From the NCBI GenBank assembly GCA_022072125.1, contig JAJVIH010000021.1, positions 64,700 through 107,196 of the forward strand: DNA of 42,497 nt. The letters run 5' to 3'. This DNA is from Myxococcota bacterium (GTDB lineage Bacteria > Myxococcota > JAJVIH01). Of the stretch, positions 1 to 8,878 are shown piece after piece (the stretch's first letter is position 1; every line of letters starts with the position of its first letter). The translations under genes were made by a program, and so were the position numbers. Below the pieces are notes generated by a model. It was given only the letters and a program-made list of their open reading frames with translations. It was not told the DNA's origin and made no database searches.

Positions 1-155
1 GAACAAACCAGTTCGCCCAGGCCGGGCGATTGGTGAGCCGGGCTGAAACGCACGGGTTTCTGCTCGATCAGACGCACGGCAACGCCCCGCCGGGCCAGTT
101 GCCAGGCTGCTTCACTGCCCGCCAGTCCGCCGCCGATGACCGTAACCCTGTTCAT
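1..155 (-). CDS. trmFO: TrmFO, folate-dependent tRNA m5U54 methyltransferase (5' end only)
   Basis: Only the first 51 codons are in the window; the gene runs off the left edge. The N-terminus shows the dinucleotide-binding motif [19 protein letters not shown], followed by the SPAH and GELVC stretches that in TrmFO (formerly Gid) lie just after the FAD-binding fold. The family uses methylenetetrahydrofolate and FADH2 to make 5-methyluridine at position 54 of tRNA. The ATG at 155-153 directly follows the TGA of a 26-codon ORF, and a GGGAG stretch lies about 11 nt upstream. trmFO follows topA in many bacteria; here a restriction-modification cassette separates them. Assignment rests on the N-terminal motif alone. 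Confidence 0.85.
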
Positions 156-236
156 TCAGGCCGTGCTCCCGGTTTTTTTTTTAAGATGTTTGGCCTCGTG
201 GTTTTCCCGGAGGACTCCGAGGTGCTCATAATCCAT
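156..236 (-). pseudogene. 26-codon ORF, possible truncated start of a DUF3375 (Wadjet jetA) gene
   Basis: The ATG at 236-234 overlaps the methyltransferase stop in a TGATG, and the frame runs 26 codons to a TGA that abuts the trmFO ATG. It begins MDYEHLGVLRENH and then turns into lysine-rich sequence over a run of ten A (plus-strand T10 at 173-182). As I recall, DUF3375 proteins (JetA of Wadjet anti-plasmid systems) start with a pattern close to M-D-Y-x-x-L-x-x-L-R-x-x-H-P-A-W-R-L-L. The match stops after the His. I infer that a following defence gene was deleted, leaving its start codon and about 13 codons joined to the trmFO leader. A chance ORF is the alternative. Confidence 0.4.
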
Positions 237-3088
237 CACTCCACCCTGAAAACCTTCATCACCTCGTCGCCGAGGTGGTTGATGACCTTCACCGCGATGC
301 GTCCACTGGCGGGTTTGTCGAAGGGGCGGGATGTGTCGCTACGAAGGCTCTCCCAGGCTTCCTCGTTGATCTCCGCTTTGAGTGTTGTCTTGAGCGCTTT
401 GTAGGGATCGTTGGCGCCGAGGAAGTACGCCTGCCGGACGAAGAAGCTCTCCTCGTTGTAGTCCGTGTCGATGAACCAGCAGGCAATCCCCTCCGCTCCG
501 TCGCTGCGGACCTTGCCGGTCTGTGGGTGGAATACGTCCACGCCGTTCACTTTCACCCGGATCCGCCCACTCGCCACCTTGTAGCGGTAGAGGCCGCTGG
601 AGGTGATCTCGTGGTCAATTCGGCCTCCAGCCTCAGTGAGGATTTCAATGTCCGGCTCGCCGAAGATGACGAACAGGTTCCCCTTGCCCGTGTTCTTCAG
701 GTCGTCGGCCATGTGCAGGTCGGCATTCATCCGCGCCTTGAGCACCGGGATGCGGCCCAGCTTCGTGAACTCCGTGGCGTGGGCCTCGTAGTTGAAGGCG
801 CAGGCCACCAGCACGTCGAAGTCCGCGTCTCCGGCCTCCCTGGCGGCGGCTACCAGGTCCTGCCGCTGCACCGTGCCGAACTCCGGGCCGATGAAGATGG
901 CGGCGCGCTTCTCTCCTTCTCCCTCGCTATACCGCCCCTCGGCGCAAATGTACGTCCCCGGCCAGGGCGTCAGCGAGGTGAAGGTAATCTTGTCCTCCTT
1001 GTGCGCCTGCTGGACGCCCGCCGTCTTGAGGTTCTCCAGGATCATCTCGACGAAGCCGTCGCCCCGGCCCTTGCCCGTCTTCTTCTCCACCAGCGGGTCA
1101 ATCAGCTCATCGTTCTCGTCCACGCCCAGGGTCCGGTGCGGGGAGATGCTCTCCACCGTGAACGGACCGGCCACGCGCACCTTCTTCTTGTCCTCGTAGG
1201 GTTTGTCATAGAGGTACTCGTATTCGGCCTTGGCTGCTATGCTGGCGTCAATCTCCTTCTGGCGCTTGATGCGCAACTCCCACCAGGAGGCATGGGCCTG
1301 CTTCGCCTCAGGGGACCAGGAGGTTTCGGCCTCGCGGGGGATTTCCCACTCCTCCCACTTCTTACCAAGGGCGCTGTTCAGCTTCTCCCGCAACGGCTCC
1401 AATTGCGCCTGAAATTTCTCCCAAATCACATCAATTTCGGCGTTGTTGGCGATGGACTTGAGGGTGATGTGCGGCACGCGCTCGTAGACGAAACCGTGGC
1501 GGATGTCGCCGCGGGTCGGAGCGGAGCTTTGCGGCGAGCGGGAGACCTCGGCCTCCTTGCGCTGGCCGTCCACGCTGTCGGCGAGGGTATAGTAGGAATA
1601 GCGGGCACCCATGATGCGGGCACGAGCCAGAGCCAGGGCGACACGGGAGGTATCGATGGTGATCCAGCGGCGGCCCCATTGCTCGGCGACGTAGGCCGTG
1701 GTTCCGGAGCCGCAAGTGGGGTCCAGGACGAGGTCACCGGGGTCAGAGGCCATGAGGAGACAGCGTTGAAGGACTTTTGGCGCAGTCTGAACGACATATA
1801 ACTTCTCTTGTCCAAATCCACTTTGCCTTGTATCACTCCAAAGATTGTTAACGGGGAACGCAGGAAAATCGTCTAGATACCTAACATAGGTCAAGGTCTT
1901 CCCAATTCCCGCTAGTCTCGAGGAGAACTTCAATCTCTTTGCTCCCAGTTCGTTCGTCTTCCATCCTCCCTTATTGACCGTATATTCGATACCTTCAACA
2001 ATAATCGGTTGTTGGGTGGATTCAGCGCCAGATTGAGATGTAAATTGATCGTATCGAAACACCTTATAGGAATCGTTAAGAGCATCAAGAGAATTAATGG
2101 ACATCCGCTTCCCGAAATGATCCTCTGCATATCGGTATTGGTCTGTGCCTTCGTCTCCGAGCACTTTCTCTCTATACTGCTGCCGATATTTTATGTTCGG
2201 CAAACTCTTTGCGTACCAAACAATCACATCATAGGTTCCAGCCACTGTATTGGTGCCAATTGCCGGACTGCCTGCCCCGCTTGTCTTCAAAAATACAATT
2301 TCAGACACAAAGTTGGTATCTCCGAAAACCTCATCCATCAACGCCCTTACCCGATGGACATTCTCATCCCCGATCTGCACGAAAATACTCCCTGAATCCG
2401 TCAACAGATCCCTCGCCACCGTCAGCCTGTCCCGCAAATAGGTCAAATACGAGTGAATCCCATCCCGCCATGTGTCCCGGAACGCCTTGACCTGCTCGGG
2501 CTCGCGGGTGATGTGGCCGGTGTCGCCGTCCTTCACGTCGCGACTGGTAGTGGACCACTGGAAGTTGGAGTTGAATTTGATGCCGTAGGGCGGGTCGAAG
2601 TAGATGCACTGGACCTTGCCGCGCAGGCCCTCGCGCTCGGCCAGGGAGGCCATGACCTGGAGGCTGTCGCCGAGGATCATGCGGTTGGACCAGTGGGCGT
2701 CGTGCTGGTAGAACTCGGTCTTGGCGTCCTCGGAGGGCAGGCCGTTGAAGTCGGCGAAGAGGTCGAACATGGACTGCTGGGCGGCCGCCTGCTTCTGCTG
2801 CGCCTCGGTCTGGCGGCGGAGGTCGTCAATGAGCACCTTGGGATGGACCTTCTCCTGGATATAGAGGGGCGGTGCATGGACGACGAGGTCGGACCAGTCC
2901 TGCTCGTCCTTGCCGCGCCAGACGAGTTGCGGGTCGAGGTCGCGGTTGCGCCGTTCGTAGGCGAGGCGGACGGGCGAGGCCTGGCGCTTGTCGAGGAGGG
3001 GCTGGTACTCGGCGGTGGGAATGTTCTTCCGCGAGGCCTCGTCGTGGGTGAGGGTTTCGATGGATTTGATGTCCTTGGGCTTGGGCAT
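236..3088 (-). CDS. Site-specific adenine DNA methyltransferase (type III Mod-like, beta class)
   Basis: Modification subunit of the cassette, 950 aa, expected to methylate adenine in the recognition site. Catalytic motif IV is DPPY at residues 165-168, and the SAM-binding motif LDPTCGSGTT lies later, at about 455-464. This IV-before-I order defines the beta class, to which type III Mod proteins belong. Residues about 230-433, the position of the target-recognition domain, are encoded by DNA of markedly lower GC (33-47% in sampled 60-nt lines, against 58-70% in the flanks), which suggests a swapped specificity cassette. A long C-terminal extension (about 520-950) has no motif I recognise. The start lies 8 nt after the DinD-fragment stop, with AAAGGTGAGG as ribosome binding site. 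Confidence 0.9.
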   Translation of the reverse strand: MPKPKDIKSIETLTHDEASRKNIPTAEYQPLLDKRQASPVRLAYERRNRDLDPQLVWRGKDEQDWSDLVVHAPPLYIQEKVHPKVLIDDLRRQTEAQQKQAAAQQSMFDLFADFNGLPSEDAKTEFYQHDAHWSNRMILGDSLQVMASLAEREGLRGKVQCIYFDPPYGIKFNSNFQWSTTSRDVKDGDTGHITREPEQVKAFRDTWRDGIHSYLTYLRDRLTVARDLLTDSGSIFVQIGDENVHRVRALMDEVFGDTNFVSEIVFLKTSGAGSPAIGTNTVAGTYDVIVWYAKSLPNIKYRQQYREKVLGDEGTDQYRYAEDHFGKRMSINSLDALNDSYKVFRYDQFTSQSGAESTQQPIIVEGIEYTVNKGGWKTNELGAKRLKFSSRLAGIGKTLTYVRYLDDFPAFPVNNLWSDTRQSGFGQEKLYVVQTAPKVLQRCLLMASDPGDLVLDPTCGSGTTAYVAEQWGRRWITIDTSRVALALARARIMGARYSYYTLADSVDGQRKEAEVSRSPQSSAPTRGDIRHGFVYERVPHITLKSIANNAEIDVIWEKFQAQLEPLREKLNSALGKKWEEWEIPREAETSWSPEAKQAHASWWELRIKRQKEIDASIAAKAEYEYLYDKPYEDKKKVRVAGPFTVESISPHRTLGVDENDELIDPLVEKKTGKGRGDGFVEMILENLKTAGVQQAHKEDKITFTSLTPWPGTYICAEGRYSEGEGEKRAAIFIGPEFGTVQRQDLVAAAREAGDADFDVLVACAFNYEAHATEFTKLGRIPVLKARMNADLHMADDLKNTGKGNLFVIFGEPDIEILTEAGGRIDHEITSSGLYRYKVASGRIRVKVNGVDVFHPQTGKVRSDGAEGIACWFIDTDYNEESFFVRQAYFLGANDPYKALKTTLKAEINEEAWESLRSDTSRPFDKPASGRIAVKVINHLGDEVMKVFRVE

Positions 3089-3096
3089 GGGTTACC

Positions 3097-3333
3097 TCAC
3101 CTTTCCGAAGAACCAACCATTTTGCTGACGTCAGCAAAATGATCCAATAGCGAGTATCCGGAGACTTCGCAGGTGGTCTTGGCCTTCGAAACCACATCGA
3201 GGAAGTTCCTCCACTGGTCATGGCCCAGGAGGAACTGCAGGTCGCGGGCGAGCCAGTATTCCACGCATCCTTCGGTCTGCTGGGCGTGGGCTTCGAACGT
3301 CCCCGTAAGGGTTTGGACGATCTCGAATTTCAT
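3097..3333 (-). CDS. Truncated DinD-like (BRO-N type) protein between the restriction and methylase genes
   Basis: A 78-aa ORF resembling the N-terminal part of DNA-damage-inducible protein D: an EYWLARDLQ-LLG segment, then WRNFL, then a DHFADVSKMV segment at 64-73. Full DinD proteins are about 270 aa; here the frame ends five residues later, at the point where the family normally continues with a GSG-A-ER segment. The ATG overlaps the nuclease stop (ATGA, 3330-3333) and its own stop is 8 nt before the methylase ATG, so it may act as a coupling ORF. Codons 65-72 coincide exactly with a 24-bp palindrome. Whether the short protein is functional is unknown; it could be a fragment kept for translational coupling. 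Confidence 0.65.
   Translation of the reverse strand: MKFEIVQTLTGTFEAHAQQTEGCVEYWLARDLQFLLGHDQWRNFLDVVSKAKTTCEVSGYSLLDHFADVSKMVGSSER
3118..3141. repeat. Perfect 24-bp palindrome inside the DinD-like ORF
   Basis: The sequence reads CATTTTGCTGAC followed by its exact reverse complement, centred between 3129 and 3130 on the core TGACGTCA. All twelve base pairs match. On the coding strand it encodes His-Phe-Ala-Asp-Val-Ser-Lys-Met. It lies 30 nt upstream of the methylase start codon, so it could be a dimeric protein-binding site or, in mRNA, a hairpin affecting the methylase ribosome binding site. Chance occurrence of a perfect 24-bp palindrome in a 42-kb window is roughly 0.003 under a uniform-base model. 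Confidence 0.9.
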
Positions 3334-6300
3334 GCTTCCACCTGTTCATCTTGCCTGGTCGCGTCCCCGATCATCTGATTAAACCGCGCCTCTACCTTCG
3401 CCTTGAAATCCGCATCCATGGCATACACGTCGGTAAACTCCGCGAACGCCCATCGTCCGTATTTCTCCAGGTTGTTGACGCCGGGTATCCAGTAAGTTTC
3501 CATTGTTTCCTTCTTGTCCTTGGCATCCTCTCCACGGTAACCCTTGATCTCGACAATCAGGTGGAGCAAATCGTCCTCGCCATGCCCGTCCTCCACCAGG
3601 ACAATGAAGTCGGGAAGGTACTTCCTCGTTTCGGACCCATACCGATACGGGACCTCCAGGCCGAGGCTGTGGTTCTTGACGTAGGCGCGGACACGAGGGT
3701 GGACCTCCGCCACCCGGCAGAACTCGGCTTCCCAGTCGCTATCCAGGATAACCCAGTTGATCTGGCATTTGTTCGGGGCTGTCCGCCAGCGATTCAGCTT
3801 CGAGGTGGTGAAGTTGACGTGGGTTGTCGATCCCGATGGGTTGTACGGGTCGAGAACAGCCTTGATGGGGCGCTCTTCCTGGAACGAACGGGTGATGGCG
3901 GCCGTGATGCGCTCGCAGGCCATATCGGCGAGGGACAGATACATGAGTTGGGTGGGATATGTTCCACCACGGCAGACCAGGCAGGAATCCATCCACTGCT
4001 TCACAATCCGTTTGAGTTGGCCAAACAGGAAGAGCGGCGGGTCCTGCCCGGGCTCCCTCCACCTGGTCTCGATGAGCCTTTTGGTCACATGGAAAAGGAT
4101 GGTGGAGGGCCTGATGTCCCCGGTATGAACCAGGTTCAGGTCCACACCTTCACCTATGATGCCCTCGTTCCTGGTGTTCGAAGGCCCGACGAGGTCAGGG
4201 GTCAATTCGAGTCTGGAGTCGTCGTTGAACACGGCTGTCAGCCGTTCCTCCGGGAGTTCGATCCGATAACCCTCCACCCGAGGGAAGCGAATCTCGAGTT
4301 CATCCCGATCTGGCCGAACCGCCTTGACGTGAACGGTCTGACGGGATGGTTGAGGCGGAGCCACAACCGGCTTGGCCGTGAAGTCAAAGGGTATCCCAAG
4401 GACGTCGGCGTACTCCACGTTGAAGAGGCCTTCCTCGTTCAGATCGTAGGACTGGCGCCGGAGGGCGCGGCCGATGACTTGTTCACACAGAAGCTGTGTT
4501 CCGAAAGCTCGGACCCCGAGGACGTGGGTCACGGTATTGGTATCCCAGCCCTCGGTGAGCATCGAAACGGAGACCACGCAACGGATGGATTCACCGAGGC
4601 GGCCCTTCTTTCCAACAGTGTTCATGACCTCCCGGAGGAGTTCCTGGTCGGTGATGTTCTCGGCGCGCTGGCGATCCCCGGTTCGTTCCAGGATATCCCG
4701 GCGAAACTGGTAGATTTCCGCCGAAACCATGTCCCGGAAATTCACGTCGAACTTGTCCCCGGACTCCAATTGCTCGCTGTCAATGAGCAGGGTGTGCGGA
4801 CGGGCGAGCGGGTTTCCGTGCTCGTCGAAGTTGCGAAACAGCGCAAGGCGGCCATTCTCCAGCGTGGTGGAGCCATCCTCGTTCACCCGATGGAACCCCG
4901 AAATGTAATCGTAGACCAGCTTGGATGTGGACGTGTTGTTGCAGACGACAATGAAGCATGGGGGAACTTCAATGTTCTGCTCGCACCAAAGGTTGAACGT
5001 GCGCTCGTAGTGACCATAGAGGGCCTCGAGCGCGGTCTGGAGCGTAACTGGAAGACGGAGGGGGTCGAGGGACGTCGCCTTGCCCCGGCCCTTCTTCGGC
5101 ATATCCTTGCGGATGTTCTCCCAAAGGTTGCGGAACGTGGGCATATCCCCGCCAGGGATATTGTCGGCAACGGGTACTCGGGGGAGTTTGACAATGCCAC
5201 ACTCGATGGCATCCATAAGGGAGAAGTCGCTCATCGTCCAGGGGAAGAGCGTGCCTTCCGCGTAGCCTGAGCCCCGAAGGAAAAACGGGGTGGCGGAGAG
5301 GTCAACGACCTGATTTATCCCCAGATTCCGGTTTACGATTTCAAGCCCTCGAATCCAGATCCTGGCGGCTTCATTGTTCTTCGTCGCCTCGTCCTTGTCC
5401 TCACCCCTAAGGTCCGCTTCGTCCTCGGTCCCCGGCTTTTCCCTGTAGCAGTGATGGGCTTCATCATTGAGGACCATCATGTTCTTGATCCCCATCAGGT
5501 CCGGCATTACTCGCTGGATCATCTGGCCTTCGGTTTCGAGGGTCTGCAGTGGGCCCCCACGGCCCTGTAAAAGAGAGCGGCCGCCCTTGGAAATATCCAT
5601 CCGTTCCCGGGGTTTGAAGGCGTGGTAATTGGTGATGACAATCTTGGCGCGGTCCAGATCGCCGAGCATATCGTTCGGAACAAGCTCCCGAGATCGGAAA
5701 TAGCTATCCGGATCGTGTGGTTGAAGAACCCGGAGGCGGTCCTTAATGGTAAGGCCCGGTGTGACTATGAGGAACCCTCGGGTGAACTTCCTGCTTCCGG
5801 GACGGCGGACGGCGTTGATGGTCTGCCAAGCGATGAGCATCGCCATGACGGTCGTCTTGCCCGCGCCGGTCGCCAGCTTCAGCGCCAAGCGTATAAGTCC
5901 CGGATTTGCATCGTTATTCGCATTTTCAAGGTATTCGAGGAAGCGCTTTCCGGTCCTGCCAATTTGGGGAGCCACTTCCGTCAACCAAATCGCTGTCTCC
6001 ACGGCCTCCACTTGGCAAAAAAACGGACGAATTTCGTTGAACTTGTGATGTCGCCAGTGCTGGAGCAATCGGGCAGTTTCGGGGAAAACATTCCAATCAT
6101 TTGAGTTGGGCTTCGCCCGCCAGGAATCAACCTCCTTACGAAGGGAGTTGATCATTCTGGTTGCATCGTACGGTTGGTTTTCCGTTGAAAGGCCACTGCC
6201 TTCGTCGAGGACCAGGAACCTCTGTGTTCTCTGTTTCTTGGGTTTGGGAATTGGAGTAATGAACTTTGCGCCGCGCCTATTCTCAACAATTCGCTGGGTA

Positions 6301-6389
6301 GGTTGGCCATGCTCATCCAGCTCCCAGTGCCTGGCCGGATATGCGTATGGGGAGTTGAGAATGGGCTTTTCGAAGAATCGGTTATCCAT
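3330..6389 (-). CDS. Restriction endonuclease, superfamily 2 helicase with PD-(D/E)xK nuclease domain
   Basis: ATP-dependent restriction subunit (about 1019 aa from the chosen start), partner of the downstream methylase. Helicase motifs are visible in order: Walker A LATGAGKT, Walker B NDEAHH, motif III SATPFF, and motif VI QVIGRALRRQ. Near the C-terminus PDFIVLV is followed by LIVEIKGY, a PD-(D/E)xK nuclease core. The N-terminus, MDNRFFEKPILNSPY, resembles the family I know as BPTD_3080-type restriction endonucleases, which are about this long. Longer starts exist at 6446 and 6395; I prefer 6389 because GGGAGTGA is well spaced there and the start at 6446 has its GGGAGG directly against the ATG. 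An inverted repeat (TTCTC-N6-GAGAA, 6407-6422) sits just upstream. The stop overlaps the DinD-like ORF. Confidence 0.9.
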   Translation of the reverse strand: MDNRFFEKPILNSPYAYPARHWELDEHGQPTQRIVENRRGAKFITPIPKPKKQRTQRFLVLDEGSGLSTENQPYDATRMINSLRKEVDSWRAKPNSNDWNVFPETARLLQHWRHHKFNEIRPFFCQVEAVETAIWLTEVAPQIGRTGKRFLEYLENANNDANPGLIRLALKLATGAGKTTVMAMLIAWQTINAVRRPGSRKFTRGFLIVTPGLTIKDRLRVLQPHDPDSYFRSRELVPNDMLGDLDRAKIVITNYHAFKPRERMDISKGGRSLLQGRGGPLQTLETEGQMIQRVMPDLMGIKNMMVLNDEAHHCYREKPGTEDEADLRGEDKDEATKNNEAARIWIRGLEIVNRNLGINQVVDLSATPFFLRGSGYAEGTLFPWTMSDFSLMDAIECGIVKLPRVPVADNIPGGDMPTFRNLWENIRKDMPKKGRGKATSLDPLRLPVTLQTALEALYGHYERTFNLWCEQNIEVPPCFIVVCNNTSTSKLVYDYISGFHRVNEDGSTTLENGRLALFRNFDEHGNPLARPHTLLIDSEQLESGDKFDVNFRDMVSAEIYQFRRDILERTGDRQRAENITDQELLREVMNTVGKKGRLGESIRCVVSVSMLTEGWDTNTVTHVLGVRAFGTQLLCEQVIGRALRRQSYDLNEEGLFNVEYADVLGIPFDFTAKPVVAPPQPSRQTVHVKAVRPDRDELEIRFPRVEGYRIELPEERLTAVFNDDSRLELTPDLVGPSNTRNEGIIGEGVDLNLVHTGDIRPSTILFHVTKRLIETRWREPGQDPPLFLFGQLKRIVKQWMDSCLVCRGGTYPTQLMYLSLADMACERITAAITRSFQEERPIKAVLDPYNPSGSTTHVNFTTSKLNRWRTAPNKCQINWVILDSDWEAEFCRVAEVHPRVRAYVKNHSLGLEVPYRYGSETRKYLPDFIVLVEDGHGEDDLLHLIVEIKGYRGEDAKDKKETMETYWIPGVNNLEKYGRWAFAEFTDVYAMDADFKAKVEARFNQMIGDATRQDEQVEA

Positions 6390-6562
6390 GGTCATCTCAC
6401 TCCCGATTCTCTTGTTCGAGAAACTTCCTTTTGAGAGTCGCGCCATCCTCCCGGGATCCGTTTCAAACGCGGGAGCCTGTTGCGCCTCTCCGCCGGTTTG
6501 CGCGCGCCGTCATCCGGGTTGTGAGCCCATAACGGCGGAATCAATTTCCGCCATGGGCGGCC
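6390..6562. other. Gap between topA and the restriction cassette
   Basis: This 173-nt stretch holds a hairpin just after topA (6534-6552), a short inverted repeat at 6407-6422 (TTCTC-N6-GAGAA) close to the nuclease start, and 17 to 19 possible extra codons if the nuclease starts at 6446 or 6395. I see no convincing sigma-70 promoter for the minus strand, so the cassette may be read from topA or from an unusual promoter. Confidence 0.5.
6534..6552 (-). terminator. Hairpin after topA
   Basis: GGCGGAA and TTCCGCC form a 7-bp stem around a 5-nt loop, ending 11 nt past the topA stop. No U-tract follows on the topA strand, so it would be a weak or factor-assisted terminator, or a 3'-end stabiliser. 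Confidence 0.35.
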
Positions 6563-8878
6563 TTACGCCGCTCTGGCTGCTGGTGAAGCGGCGGGTTCCG
6601 CGCCGGGCAGGTCCTCGTGGTAGCCGCAGCCGCGCACCGGGCACCCGATGTGTGGACCGATGCGTTTGGATTCCTTGTACACCAGGTAGGGGTTGCCGCA
6701 GGAGGGGCATTTTTTATCCACCGGCCTGGCCCAGGAAACCATGTCGCATTCCGGATAACGGTTGCAGCCGTAGAATACCCGCTGGAATTTGCCCTTGGTG
6801 CGCCTCTCCACCAGTTCGCCCACCTTGCATTTGGGACAAGCCACGCCAATCGGCAGGGGCATGGCGGTCTTGCAGGTGGGATAGTCGGAGCAGGCGAGGA
6901 ATTTGCCGAAGCGTCCGCGCCGGATGACCATGAACTTTCCGCAGGTGGGGCATTTGCGGCTGGTGGGCTCACTGTCCGGCAGGACCTCGATTTTGCCATT
7001 GACGTTCCGGAACTCCTTGGTGTTTTTGCATTCCGGATAGTTCGAGCAGGCGAGGAAGCTGCCGTTCCGCCCGAACTTGATGACCATCATATTGCCGCAT
7101 TTCTCGCAGACCACATCCGTCGGCGTCTCCTGACGCTTGACGTCTTTCATCTTCTTCTTGGCTTCGTCGAGGGTCTTGACGAAGGGCTGGTAGAAATTCT
7201 TGAGCACGCTCTGCCAGGCCGCCTTGCCATCCTCGATTTCGTCGAGGCGGTTCTCCATGCTGGCGGTGAAGGAGACATTCATGACATCGGGAAACGCCTG
7301 CACCAGCAGATCGCTGACGATAAAACCCAGTTCGGTGGGGGCCAGGCGTCCCTGATTGCGGGTGATGTATTCCTTATCCAGCAGGGTGGACATGATCTGG
7401 GCGTAGGTGCTGGGGCGGCCAATGCCCTGCTCCTCCAGTTCCTTGACCAGGGTGCCTTCCGAAAAGCGGGGCGGGGGCTGGGTGAAATGCTGCTCGGGCA
7501 GCACATCCTTCAGGCGGAGTTTTTCCCCTTCCTTCAACTGCGGCAACACCCCTGGTCCGGCGCCGTCGTTTTCTTCCTTCTCGGCGGCGTCATTATCGGA
7601 AGTATCCGCGACCACGGCTTCGGCGCGGTACAGGGTGAGGTAGCCGTCAAACTTGAGCACCGATCCGGTGGCGCGGAAGGTCAGGCGTCCCGCCTCGATT
7701 TCAGCCGTGGTCTGATCAAATACCGCCTGATTCATCTGGCAGGCGATGAAGCGCTTCCAGATCAGGGTGTAGAGCTTGAGTTGATCGGCGTCCAGGTATT
7801 TGGCCATGGCCTCCGGCGTGCGGCTTGCGCTGGTCGGGCGAATGGCCTCGTGGGCGTCCTGGGCGCTGGATTTTCCCTTGTAGAACTGCGGGGAGTCCGG
7901 CAGGTATTCCTTTCCGTAATTCTTCTGGATATGCTCCCGCGCCATTTCAAGGGCGTCGTTGGAGAGCCGCACCGAGTCGGTGCGCATGTAGGTGATGAGA
8001 CCCACGGTTTCGTCGCCTACCTCGACGCCTTCGTACAGCCCCTGGGCGATGCCCATGGTGCGCGCGGCGCTGAAGCCAAAGCGGGCGGCGGCGTCCTGCT
8101 GCAGCTTGGAAGTGATGTAGGGCGGCGGGGCCTTGCGCCGGCGTTCCTTGATTTGCAGCGAGGCGACCTTGTAGGCGGCCTTTTTGGCCTCTTCCGCCAG
8201 GGCCAGGGTTTCCGGCCCCTGTTTGAGGTCCACCTTCTTTTTGTCCACATGGGTCAGGCGGGCCTTGAAGCTGGGCGGCAGGGCGGCGTCCAGCAGAACC
8301 TCCAGGGTCCAGTATTCCTGCGGCTTGAAGGCCTGGATTTCCCGCTCCCGCTCGACCACCAGGCGCAGGGCGACGCTCTGCACACGGCCGGCGGAGAGCC
8401 CGCGGCGCACCTTATCCCACAGGATGGGGCTGATCTGGTATCCGACGATGCGATCCAGCACCCGGCGCGCCTGCTGGGAGTCCACCTTGTTCATGTCAAT
8501 GGGGCGTTCGTCCTTGAGCGCCTTCAGAACCGCGGACTTGGTGATTTCATTGAAGGTGATGCGGCGGATATTGGGATTGTCCTTTTTGAGGATTTCCTCG
8601 ATATGCCAGGCGATGGCCTCGCCTTCACGGTCCGGGTCGGGGGCGAGCAGGACCTTCTCCGCCTTTTTGGCGGCGTCATGGAGTTCCTTGAGGACCTTGG
8701 TCTTCTCCTTGATGGTCTGGTAGTGCGGAATAAAGGTCTCCAGATCCACTCCTATCTTGCTTTTGGGCAGATCGCGCACATGTCCCACGGAAGCCTTCAC
8801 GGAATAGCCGCGGCCCAGGTACTTCTGCAGGGTCTTCGCCTTGGCGGGCGATTCCACGATGACCAGCGTATTTGGCAT
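6563..8878 (-). CDS. topA: DNA topoisomerase I
   Basis: Type IA topoisomerase that relaxes negative supercoils; 771 aa. The N-terminal TOPRIM domain shows IVESPAKAK with the catalytic Glu at 9, and DPDREGE at 81-87. The transesterifying tyrosine is Tyr297 in ITYMRTDS. Four C-terminal zinc-ribbon units follow (about residues 585-755): CEKCG...C..YPEC, CPTCG...C..YPTC, CPKC...C..YPEC and CPSCG...C...C. The ATG has GGAG 8 nt upstream. It lies 19 nt after dprA on the same strand, the common dprA-topA order. Confidence 0.97.
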   Translation of the reverse strand: MPNTLVIVESPAKAKTLQKYLGRGYSVKASVGHVRDLPKSKIGVDLETFIPHYQTIKEKTKVLKELHDAAKKAEKVLLAPDPDREGEAIAWHIEEILKKDNPNIRRITFNEITKSAVLKALKDERPIDMNKVDSQQARRVLDRIVGYQISPILWDKVRRGLSAGRVQSVALRLVVEREREIQAFKPQEYWTLEVLLDAALPPSFKARLTHVDKKKVDLKQGPETLALAEEAKKAAYKVASLQIKERRRKAPPPYITSKLQQDAAARFGFSAARTMGIAQGLYEGVEVGDETVGLITYMRTDSVRLSNDALEMAREHIQKNYGKEYLPDSPQFYKGKSSAQDAHEAIRPTSASRTPEAMAKYLDADQLKLYTLIWKRFIACQMNQAVFDQTTAEIEAGRLTFRATGSVLKFDGYLTLYRAEAVVADTSDNDAAEKEENDGAGPGVLPQLKEGEKLRLKDVLPEQHFTQPPPRFSEGTLVKELEEQGIGRPSTYAQIMSTLLDKEYITRNQGRLAPTELGFIVSDLLVQAFPDVMNVSFTASMENRLDEIEDGKAAWQSVLKNFYQPFVKTLDEAKKKMKDVKRQETPTDVVCEKCGNMMVIKFGRNGSFLACSNYPECKNTKEFRNVNGKIEVLPDSEPTSRKCPTCGKFMVIRRGRFGKFLACSDYPTCKTAMPLPIGVACPKCKVGELVERRTKGKFQRVFYGCNRYPECDMVSWARPVDKKCPSCGNPYLVYKESKRIGPHIGCPVRGCGYHEDLPGAEPAASPAARAA

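What the first reader, a model, noticed from the sequence alone, without database searches (positions are those of the whole stretch)
1790..2400. Low-GC target-recognition region in the methylase: specificity swap
Methylase codons about 230-433 have 33-47% GC in sampled 60-nt lines, while the flanking gene is 58-70%. This segment lies between motif IV and motif I, where beta-class enzymes hold the target-recognition domain. It looks like a recombined specificity cassette.
Basis: partly seen in the sequence, partly recalled or inferred. Interest (0 to 1): 0.55.

Follow-up and report, generated by a model that had tools for sequence, protein, structure and literature searches.

The report
Swappable recognition domain, always AT-rich
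The AT-rich stretch is the DNA-reading part of a bacterial restriction-modification enzyme, a part that such enzymes trade like a cassette; nearly every relative examined is AT-rich there too, so the base composition marks the part itself rather than one recent swap in this genome.

Summary
In the 950-codon mod gene (236-3088, minus strand) third-position GC drops from 0.875 to 0.455 over codons 231-443 (window 1760-2398). The block is the target-recognition domain (TRD) of a type III-like Mod, between motifs IV and I. Homologues are 87-97% identical in the adjoining flanks and 18-47% inside. TRD distances are uncorrelated with backbone distances (Mantel r 0.00 and -0.05; the two backbone halves 0.43). 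Synonymous identity falls towards chance in the amino-acid-conserved edges on both sides, as exchange with crossovers in the conserved motifs predicts.

This gene's contrast is extreme because its flanks are unusually GC-rich (rank 1 of 84 against Res); its TRD is ordinary (rank 32 of 84). No donor, silent copy, or same-backbone strain with another TRD was found.

TRD exchange is a known kind, and a low-GC modA12 recognition domain is published (PMC3311624). The near-universal synonymous AT offset is the interesting residue.

The parts
236..3088 (-). mod gene, 950 aa, type III-like N6/N4 DNA methyltransferase (modification subunit)
   Evidence: PADLOC MTase_III PDLC03632, E 0, residues 46-949; Pfam N6_N4_Mtase 1.7e-32
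1760..2398 (-). low-GC3 segment, codons 231-443
   Evidence: change-point, GC3 0.455 in / 0.875 out
1754..2305 (-). hypervariable target-recognition domain, about residues 262-445
   Evidence: 18-47% mean identity to homologues in the 25-residue bins wholly inside, against 87-97% at residues 126-250 and 451-500; folded model with EcoP15I Mod as best solved match
2585..2596 (-). catalytic motif IV, DPPY (165-168)
   Evidence: invariant in 30 of 30 aligned sequences
1697..1723 (-). SAM-binding motif I, DPTCGSGTT (456-464)
   Evidence: D456 to T463 invariant in 30 of 30 aligned sequences, T464 nearly so
2306..2488 (-). left exchange edge, residues 201-261, mostly amino-acid-conserved but synonymously divergent and losing GC3
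   Evidence: four-fold identity excess 0.04-0.12 against 0.14-0.26 at residues 126-200; relative GC3 down to -0.22
1619..1753 (-). right exchange edge, residues 446-490, mostly amino-acid-conserved but synonymously divergent
   Evidence: four-fold identity excess 0.03-0.10 against 0.23 at residues 526-550; relative GC3 about -0.12 at 449-456
3330..6446 (-). res gene, 1038 aa, BPTD_3080-family restriction endonuclease
   Evidence: NCBIfam NF046055, 1354.8 bits, cut-off 800; Pfam ResIII and RE_endonuc above cut-off
3097..3333 (-). 78-aa ORF in the slot between res and mod, weakly Bro-N/DinD-like
   Evidence: Pfam Bro-N E 0.035, below the curated cut-off; not alignable with two larger slot ORFs, one of them a Bro-N hit

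Best explanation
The block encodes the target-recognition domain of a beta-class, type III-like modification methyltransferase, inserted between the catalytic motif (IV) and the SAM-binding motif (I); it should set the DNA site that Mod methylates and Res spares. Across this family TRDs are exchanged as cassettes. The conserved motif-bearing sequence on either side offers homology, crossovers fall there, and a new specificity is installed in both Mod and the Mod-Res complex at once. Shown: position, hypervariability, decoupling from the backbone, synonymous divergence reaching into the conserved edges, family-wide AT offset at synonymous sites. Inferred: homologous recombination as the route, change of DNA target. 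Most likely cause of the AT offset (about 0.5, inferred): TRD cassettes circulate between hosts faster than they adapt to any of them and draw on an AT-leaning pool. The offset therefore does not date a swap in this genome.
For: Mod/Res assignments. Divergence confined to about residues 262-445, with adjoining flanks 87-97% identical. TRD identity uncorrelated with flank identity (Spearman -0.12 over 3003 pairs, the two flanks 0.48; Mantel TRD against left and right flank 0.00 and -0.05, left against right 0.43, n 108). Four-fold identity above chance is 0.14-0.26 in the left far flank, 0.03-0.12 in the edges, 0.01-0.03 in the TRD and 0.23 again at residues 526-550 (1246 pairs). TRD GC3 below flank in 146 of 148 rows; flanks equal Res in GC3 on average (difference -0.003, n 84). 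Conserved columns inside the TRD are low (0.63) while variable columns outside are high (0.81), so hypervariability alone is not the cause. Structure: EcoP15I Mod 4zcf is the best Foldseek match, E 4.6e-19.
Against: No donor for this TRD: best relatives are 45-49% identical. No pair with near-identical flanking DNA and different TRDs was found, so no single exchange is seen at base resolution. The observed hosts have on average a higher GC3 than the TRDs, so an AT-leaning pool must include hosts not sampled here, or the TRD has its own equilibrium. The pairs are not independent.
Confidence: 0.82

Rival explanations
1. One reading: a recent import of a specificity cassette into this genome from an AT-rich donor, with the low GC as its scar.
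For: Sharp change-point. The low-GC3 segment begins about 30 codons inside the amino-acid-conserved left flank. TRD GC3 0.44 lies below all 14 other window ORFs sampled, Res included (0.59-0.81).
Against: 146 of 148 rows show the same sign. The window's TRD-minus-Res difference ranks only 32 of 84, while its flank-minus-Res difference ranks 1 of 84. No donor found. No other copy in the genome.
Confidence: 0.25
2. Intrinsic AT equilibrium: TRD DNA does not recombine with homologous partners and so escapes GC-biased gene conversion (or is under another local pressure), and drifts to an AT-leaning mutational balance wherever it lives.
For: Offset present in AT-rich hosts too (flank GC3 0.30-0.45: 12 of 14 rows, mean -0.124). 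Same-TRD pairs have four-fold sites near chance identity (0.279 against 0.257) yet keep the offset. Third positions in GC-rich hosts are nearly uniform (A .22 C .29 G .26 T .24). Type I HsdS shows it too (28 of 29).
Against: TRD GC3 still follows the host (slope 0.66; four-fold 0.52), and the offset is smallest in the most AT-rich hosts, as an AT-rich pool with partial adaptation would also give. No direct measure of conversion was possible.
Confidence: 0.35
3. No recombination: a fast-evolving domain simply has weak codon bias.
For: Low GC3 and low conservation coincide; in Res the two correlate in the same sense (rho 0.52, largest depression -0.067).
Against: Variable columns outside the TRD keep GC3 0.81; columns at least 90% conserved inside it have 0.63. 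Other variable regions of Mod show no such drop. Synonymous divergence extends into amino-acid-conserved edges.
Confidence: 0.05

Closest known systems
modA alleles of Neisseria and Haemophilus influenzae (PMC3311624; passages read)
   Same: Type III Mod with conserved 5' and 3' parts and an en-bloc exchanged DNA recognition domain; the modA12 domain has 28% GC against 40% on both sides.
   Different: Phase-variable regulators in two host groups; no phase-variation repeat was found here. This family is a different, larger Mod paired with a BPTD_3080 Res, spread over many phyla. There the low GC was read as horizontal acquisition; here it is a near-constant of the family.
Type III TRD movement in Helicobacter pylori (PMC3983042; passages read)
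   Same: TRDs described there as mobile and able to move between non-orthologous type III mod genes through conserved methylase motifs.
   Different: Within-species data there; here phylum-wide comparison with no known site. For the window TRD only family-length ORFs (906-1107 aa, one fragment of 596) rang at E 1e-15 among 195 phylum genomes.
EcoP15I Mod (PDB 4zcf)
   Same: Best solved match of the predicted residues 120-560: Foldseek E 4.6e-19; second look Z 21.3, 301 residues, rmsd 8.5.
   Different: 644 aa against 950; sequence match only over residues 120-294 and weakly at 438-468.

Membership tests
Type III restriction-modification system | Mod subunit of the type III methyltransferase family | tested here: met
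   PADLOC MTase_III PDLC03632 over residues 46-949, 1469.6 bits
Type III restriction-modification system | Beta-class motif order IV, TRD, I | tested here: met
   DPPY 165-168, variable block 262-445, DPTCGSGTT 456-464; class order recalled
Type III restriction-modification system | Adjacent Res with helicase and endonuclease domains | tested here: met
   ResIII 30.9 bits (cut-off 22.5), RE_endonuc 24.7 (23.4); BPTD_3080 1354.8 (800); PADLOC's own Res models match only weakly (17.3 bits)
Type III restriction-modification system | Asymmetric site, one-strand methylation, ATP-dependent cleavage at a distance | not testable with these tools
   needs methylome sequencing and enzyme assays
Exchangeable TRD/DRD cassette in Mod | Conserved flanks, divergent block | tested here: met
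Exchangeable TRD/DRD cassette in Mod | TRD genealogy independent of the backbone | tested here: met
   Mantel 0.00 and -0.05 against 0.43; synonymous identity decay
Exchangeable TRD/DRD cassette in Mod | Same backbone with different TRDs among strains of one species | tested here: inconclusive
   host relatives reach only the same phylum; the closest comparison, two Pseudomonas plasmids, has different TRDs but already divergent flanks (about 0.67-0.86 nt identity)
Phase-variable mod (phasevarion) | Simple-sequence repeat tract in or before the gene | tested here: not met
   only one tandem repeat in 1-7000, at 5800-5814 inside res
Inverting or shuffling TRD locus with silent copies | Second TRD copy or flanking repeats | tested here: not met
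   no direct repeats in 1-7000 and one inverted pair, inside res; single copy in the genome (assembly of 78 contigs)

The most novel reading that the evidence does not exclude
TRD-coding DNA, in type III mod and type I hsdS alike, keeps its own AT-leaning synonymous composition in nearly every host, even when its synonymous sites have turned over completely. That would be an intrinsic compositional regime of non-homologous, exchanged cassettes (for example escape from GC-biased gene conversion) rather than the scar of recent import, so low GC in specificity domains could not be used to infer or date transfer.
Probability: 0.35. Interest if true: 0.6.

Novelty: new member of a known kind. Interest (0 to 1): 0.4.

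Why it matters
It shows where TRDs are cut and joined in a widespread, little-described restriction-modification family: the junctions lie in the conserved motif-bearing edges, which is useful for designing specificity chimeras of such enzymes. It also shows that low GC in a recognition domain is a near-constant, so a common argument for recent horizontal acquisition does not hold in this family. Why exchanged recognition domains stay AT-rich at silent sites in almost every host is an open question that public genomes could answer.

Tried and rejected
Donor search for the window TRD: plasmids (43 records, best 45.5%), phages (4 records, 28.5%), phylum genomes (8 of 195 at E 1e-15 including self, best other 48-49%), viral contigs (0). 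E. coli genomes: no DNA match to the whole mod gene. Hypervariability as the cause of low GC3: rejected. Phase variation or silent cassettes: none seen. Whole-protein fold of Mod: poor (mean pLDDT 54.7), replaced by residues 120-560 (79.8). Same-species allele hunt: the order-level search found 13 of 399 genomes, but no recent same-backbone pair. The small slot ORF does not align with two larger slot ORFs.

Literature: ten searches, all used. Passages were read in PMC3311624, PMC3983042, PMC12707154 and PMC7776575; every other paper was seen in search listings only. The only direct statement of a low-GC recognition domain that I read is in PMC3311624. Subscription journals are mostly not held, so I do not claim that the family-wide or hsdS pattern is absent from print. 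An older enterobacterial hsd paper that may mention composition is recalled only and was not seen.

Dropped rows: one search keeps the best 80 of 579 relatives. One search dropped 3 of 80 with stops or a frameshift. One search dropped 4 plus 6 duplicates. In one search, 148 of 184 loci given were kept; the others had no family match or a partial or broken frame. Two identical pairs remain among the 148 rows (L006/L109, L054/L106). HsdS: loci were taken for 30 of 52 matches, and 29 had a usable neighbour, which was not verified to be HsdM.

Full report
What is there. The finding lies in a 950-codon gene on the minus strand (236-3088) next to a 1038-codon gene (3330-6446). The first matches the PADLOC type III methyltransferase model over nearly its whole length. 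The second is a BPTD_3080-family restriction endonuclease by NCBIfam, with ResIII and RE_endonuc domains by Pfam. In 88 of 88 loci where both genes could be placed, Res precedes Mod on the same strand (a few of the 88 are duplicate fetches of one locus). The closest solved relatives by sequence are type III Mods, among them EcoP15I, and CcrM, matching only around the catalytic motifs.

The observation. The composition drop is real and is a synonymous one. GC at codon positions 1 and 2 changes little, while GC3 falls from about 0.9 to about 0.45 and recovers. The best segment is codons 231-443, far outside what shuffled codons give; four-fold sites agree, 46 of 93 against 321 of 358.

It is the TRD. 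In an alignment of the window with 77 intact homologues from named genome records of many phyla, residues 51-75 and 126-250 are 87-97% identical to the window on average, 451-500 92-97%, and the bins between 276 and 425 only 18-47%, with 56-60% in the two bins that straddle the boundaries. Motif IV (165-168) and motif I (456-464) frame the block. A model of residues 120-560 built from 101 sequences reached mean pLDDT 79.8, with about 85-98 in most of the TRD. Its best Foldseek match is EcoP15I Mod; the second look puts M.MboIIA, M.BceJIV and CcrM on top with Z 22-23 and EcoP15I at 21.3 with rmsd 8.5, so domain placement differs.

It is exchanged. TRD identity does not follow backbone identity (Spearman -0.12 over 3003 pairs, while the left and right backbone halves correlate at 0.48). 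In a larger set dereplicated to 108, Mantel correlations of TRD with left and right backbone are 0.00 (p 0.50) and -0.05, against 0.43 between the halves. A sharper sign is at silent sites. Among 1263 pairs whose far flanks still share four-fold sites above chance, 1246 have different TRDs; in these the excess identity falls from 0.26 (residues 151-175) through 0.04-0.12 in residues 201-262 to 0.01-0.03 in the TRD, stays at 0.03-0.10 in 441-490 and returns to 0.23 at 526-550. Most of those edges are conserved in protein, so the DNA next to the TRD shares the TRD's older genealogy, as expected if crossovers fall in the conserved edges. GC3 is lowered in parts of the same edges. Pairs are not independent, so I give no p-value. 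In 41 same-TRD pairs (60-95% identical) four-fold identity in the TRD is near chance (0.279 against 0.257) but well above it in the flanks (0.501 against 0.389); flank excess exceeds TRD excess in 33 of 41.

The AT-richness is not special to this gene. GC3 is lower in the TRD than in the flanks in 78 of 78, 96 of 96, 45 of 46 on viral contigs and, with these pooled and seven plasmid loci added, 146 of 148 rows (mean -0.238; four-fold 145 of 148). The two exceptions, L049 and L193, are in AT-rich hosts. The offset is larger in GC-rich hosts (about -0.28) than in AT-rich ones (-0.124 for flank GC3 0.30-0.45, 12 of 14). Flanks match their own Res on average (difference -0.003, n 84), and the TRD is below Res in 84 of 84. 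In Res itself no 50-residue window departs on average by more than 0.067 (61 full sequences). Type I HsdS genes of the same phylum are lower in GC3 than their longest same-strand neighbour in 28 of 29 loci.

Why this gene looked striking. Its TRD-to-flank contrast is the largest of 96, but its TRD-to-Res difference ranks only 32 of 84, while its flank-to-Res difference ranks first of 84. The flanks (0.875) exceed all 14 other window ORFs sampled, Res included (0.59-0.81), and the TRD lies below them all. So the backbone of this mod is GC-rich for its host: the gene is a mosaic twice over. I cannot say when either part arrived.

What causes the offset. Two readings survive. In one, cassettes circulate faster than they adapt, drawing on an AT-leaning pool; TRD composition follows the host only in part (slope 0.66; four-fold 0.52). 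In the other, TRD DNA has its own AT-leaning balance: silent sites in same-TRD pairs have turned over almost fully, yet in GC-rich hosts the third bases are nearly uniform rather than host-like. Hypervariability alone does not explain it. I lean to the first at about 0.5 and give the second 0.35.

What is known. TRD exchange in type III mod genes is established in Neisseria, Haemophilus and Helicobacter, and one paper reports the low GC of the modA12 domain and reads it as horizontal transfer (PMC3311624, passages; PMC3983042, passages). This is a new member of a known kind. The near-constant silent-site offset over a phylum-wide family is what I would follow.

Noticed in passing
window 3089-3329 and the Res-Mod gap in L063, L010, L053, L080, L021, L030, L018, L217: The gap between res and mod is a variable cargo slot (longer than 150 nt in 43 of 88 loci, up to 2.3 kb). 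In the 10 slot ORFs scanned Pfam finds TIR, Bro-N (two), NYN, Fic, DUF4062 with HATPase and Fic-like_C, and GmrSD_N; one DUF4268 match is below cut-off and two ORFs have none. Several match PADLOC candidate defence models such as PDC-S13, PDC-S11 and SoFic. pAQ5 carries UPF0175 and DUF3368 genes there.
   Followed up: partly
L224, L225 downstream of mod: On two Pseudomonas plasmids mod is followed directly by a gene annotated as 3'-5' exonuclease or UvrD-helicase domain protein, perhaps a third operon member.
   Followed up: no
window 236-1750 and 2400-3088: The conserved parts of this mod have GC3 about 0.87, above all 14 other ORFs sampled in the window, Res (0.71) included, and rank 1 of 84 for flank minus Res: the backbone itself may be a newcomer.
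   Followed up: partly
L122-L151: HsdS genes have lower GC3 than a same-strand neighbour in 28 of 29 loci, mean difference -0.153.
   Followed up: partly
L011, L057, L121: Mod genes in these loci are interrupted by stop codons, so the system may decay in some hosts.
   Followed up: no
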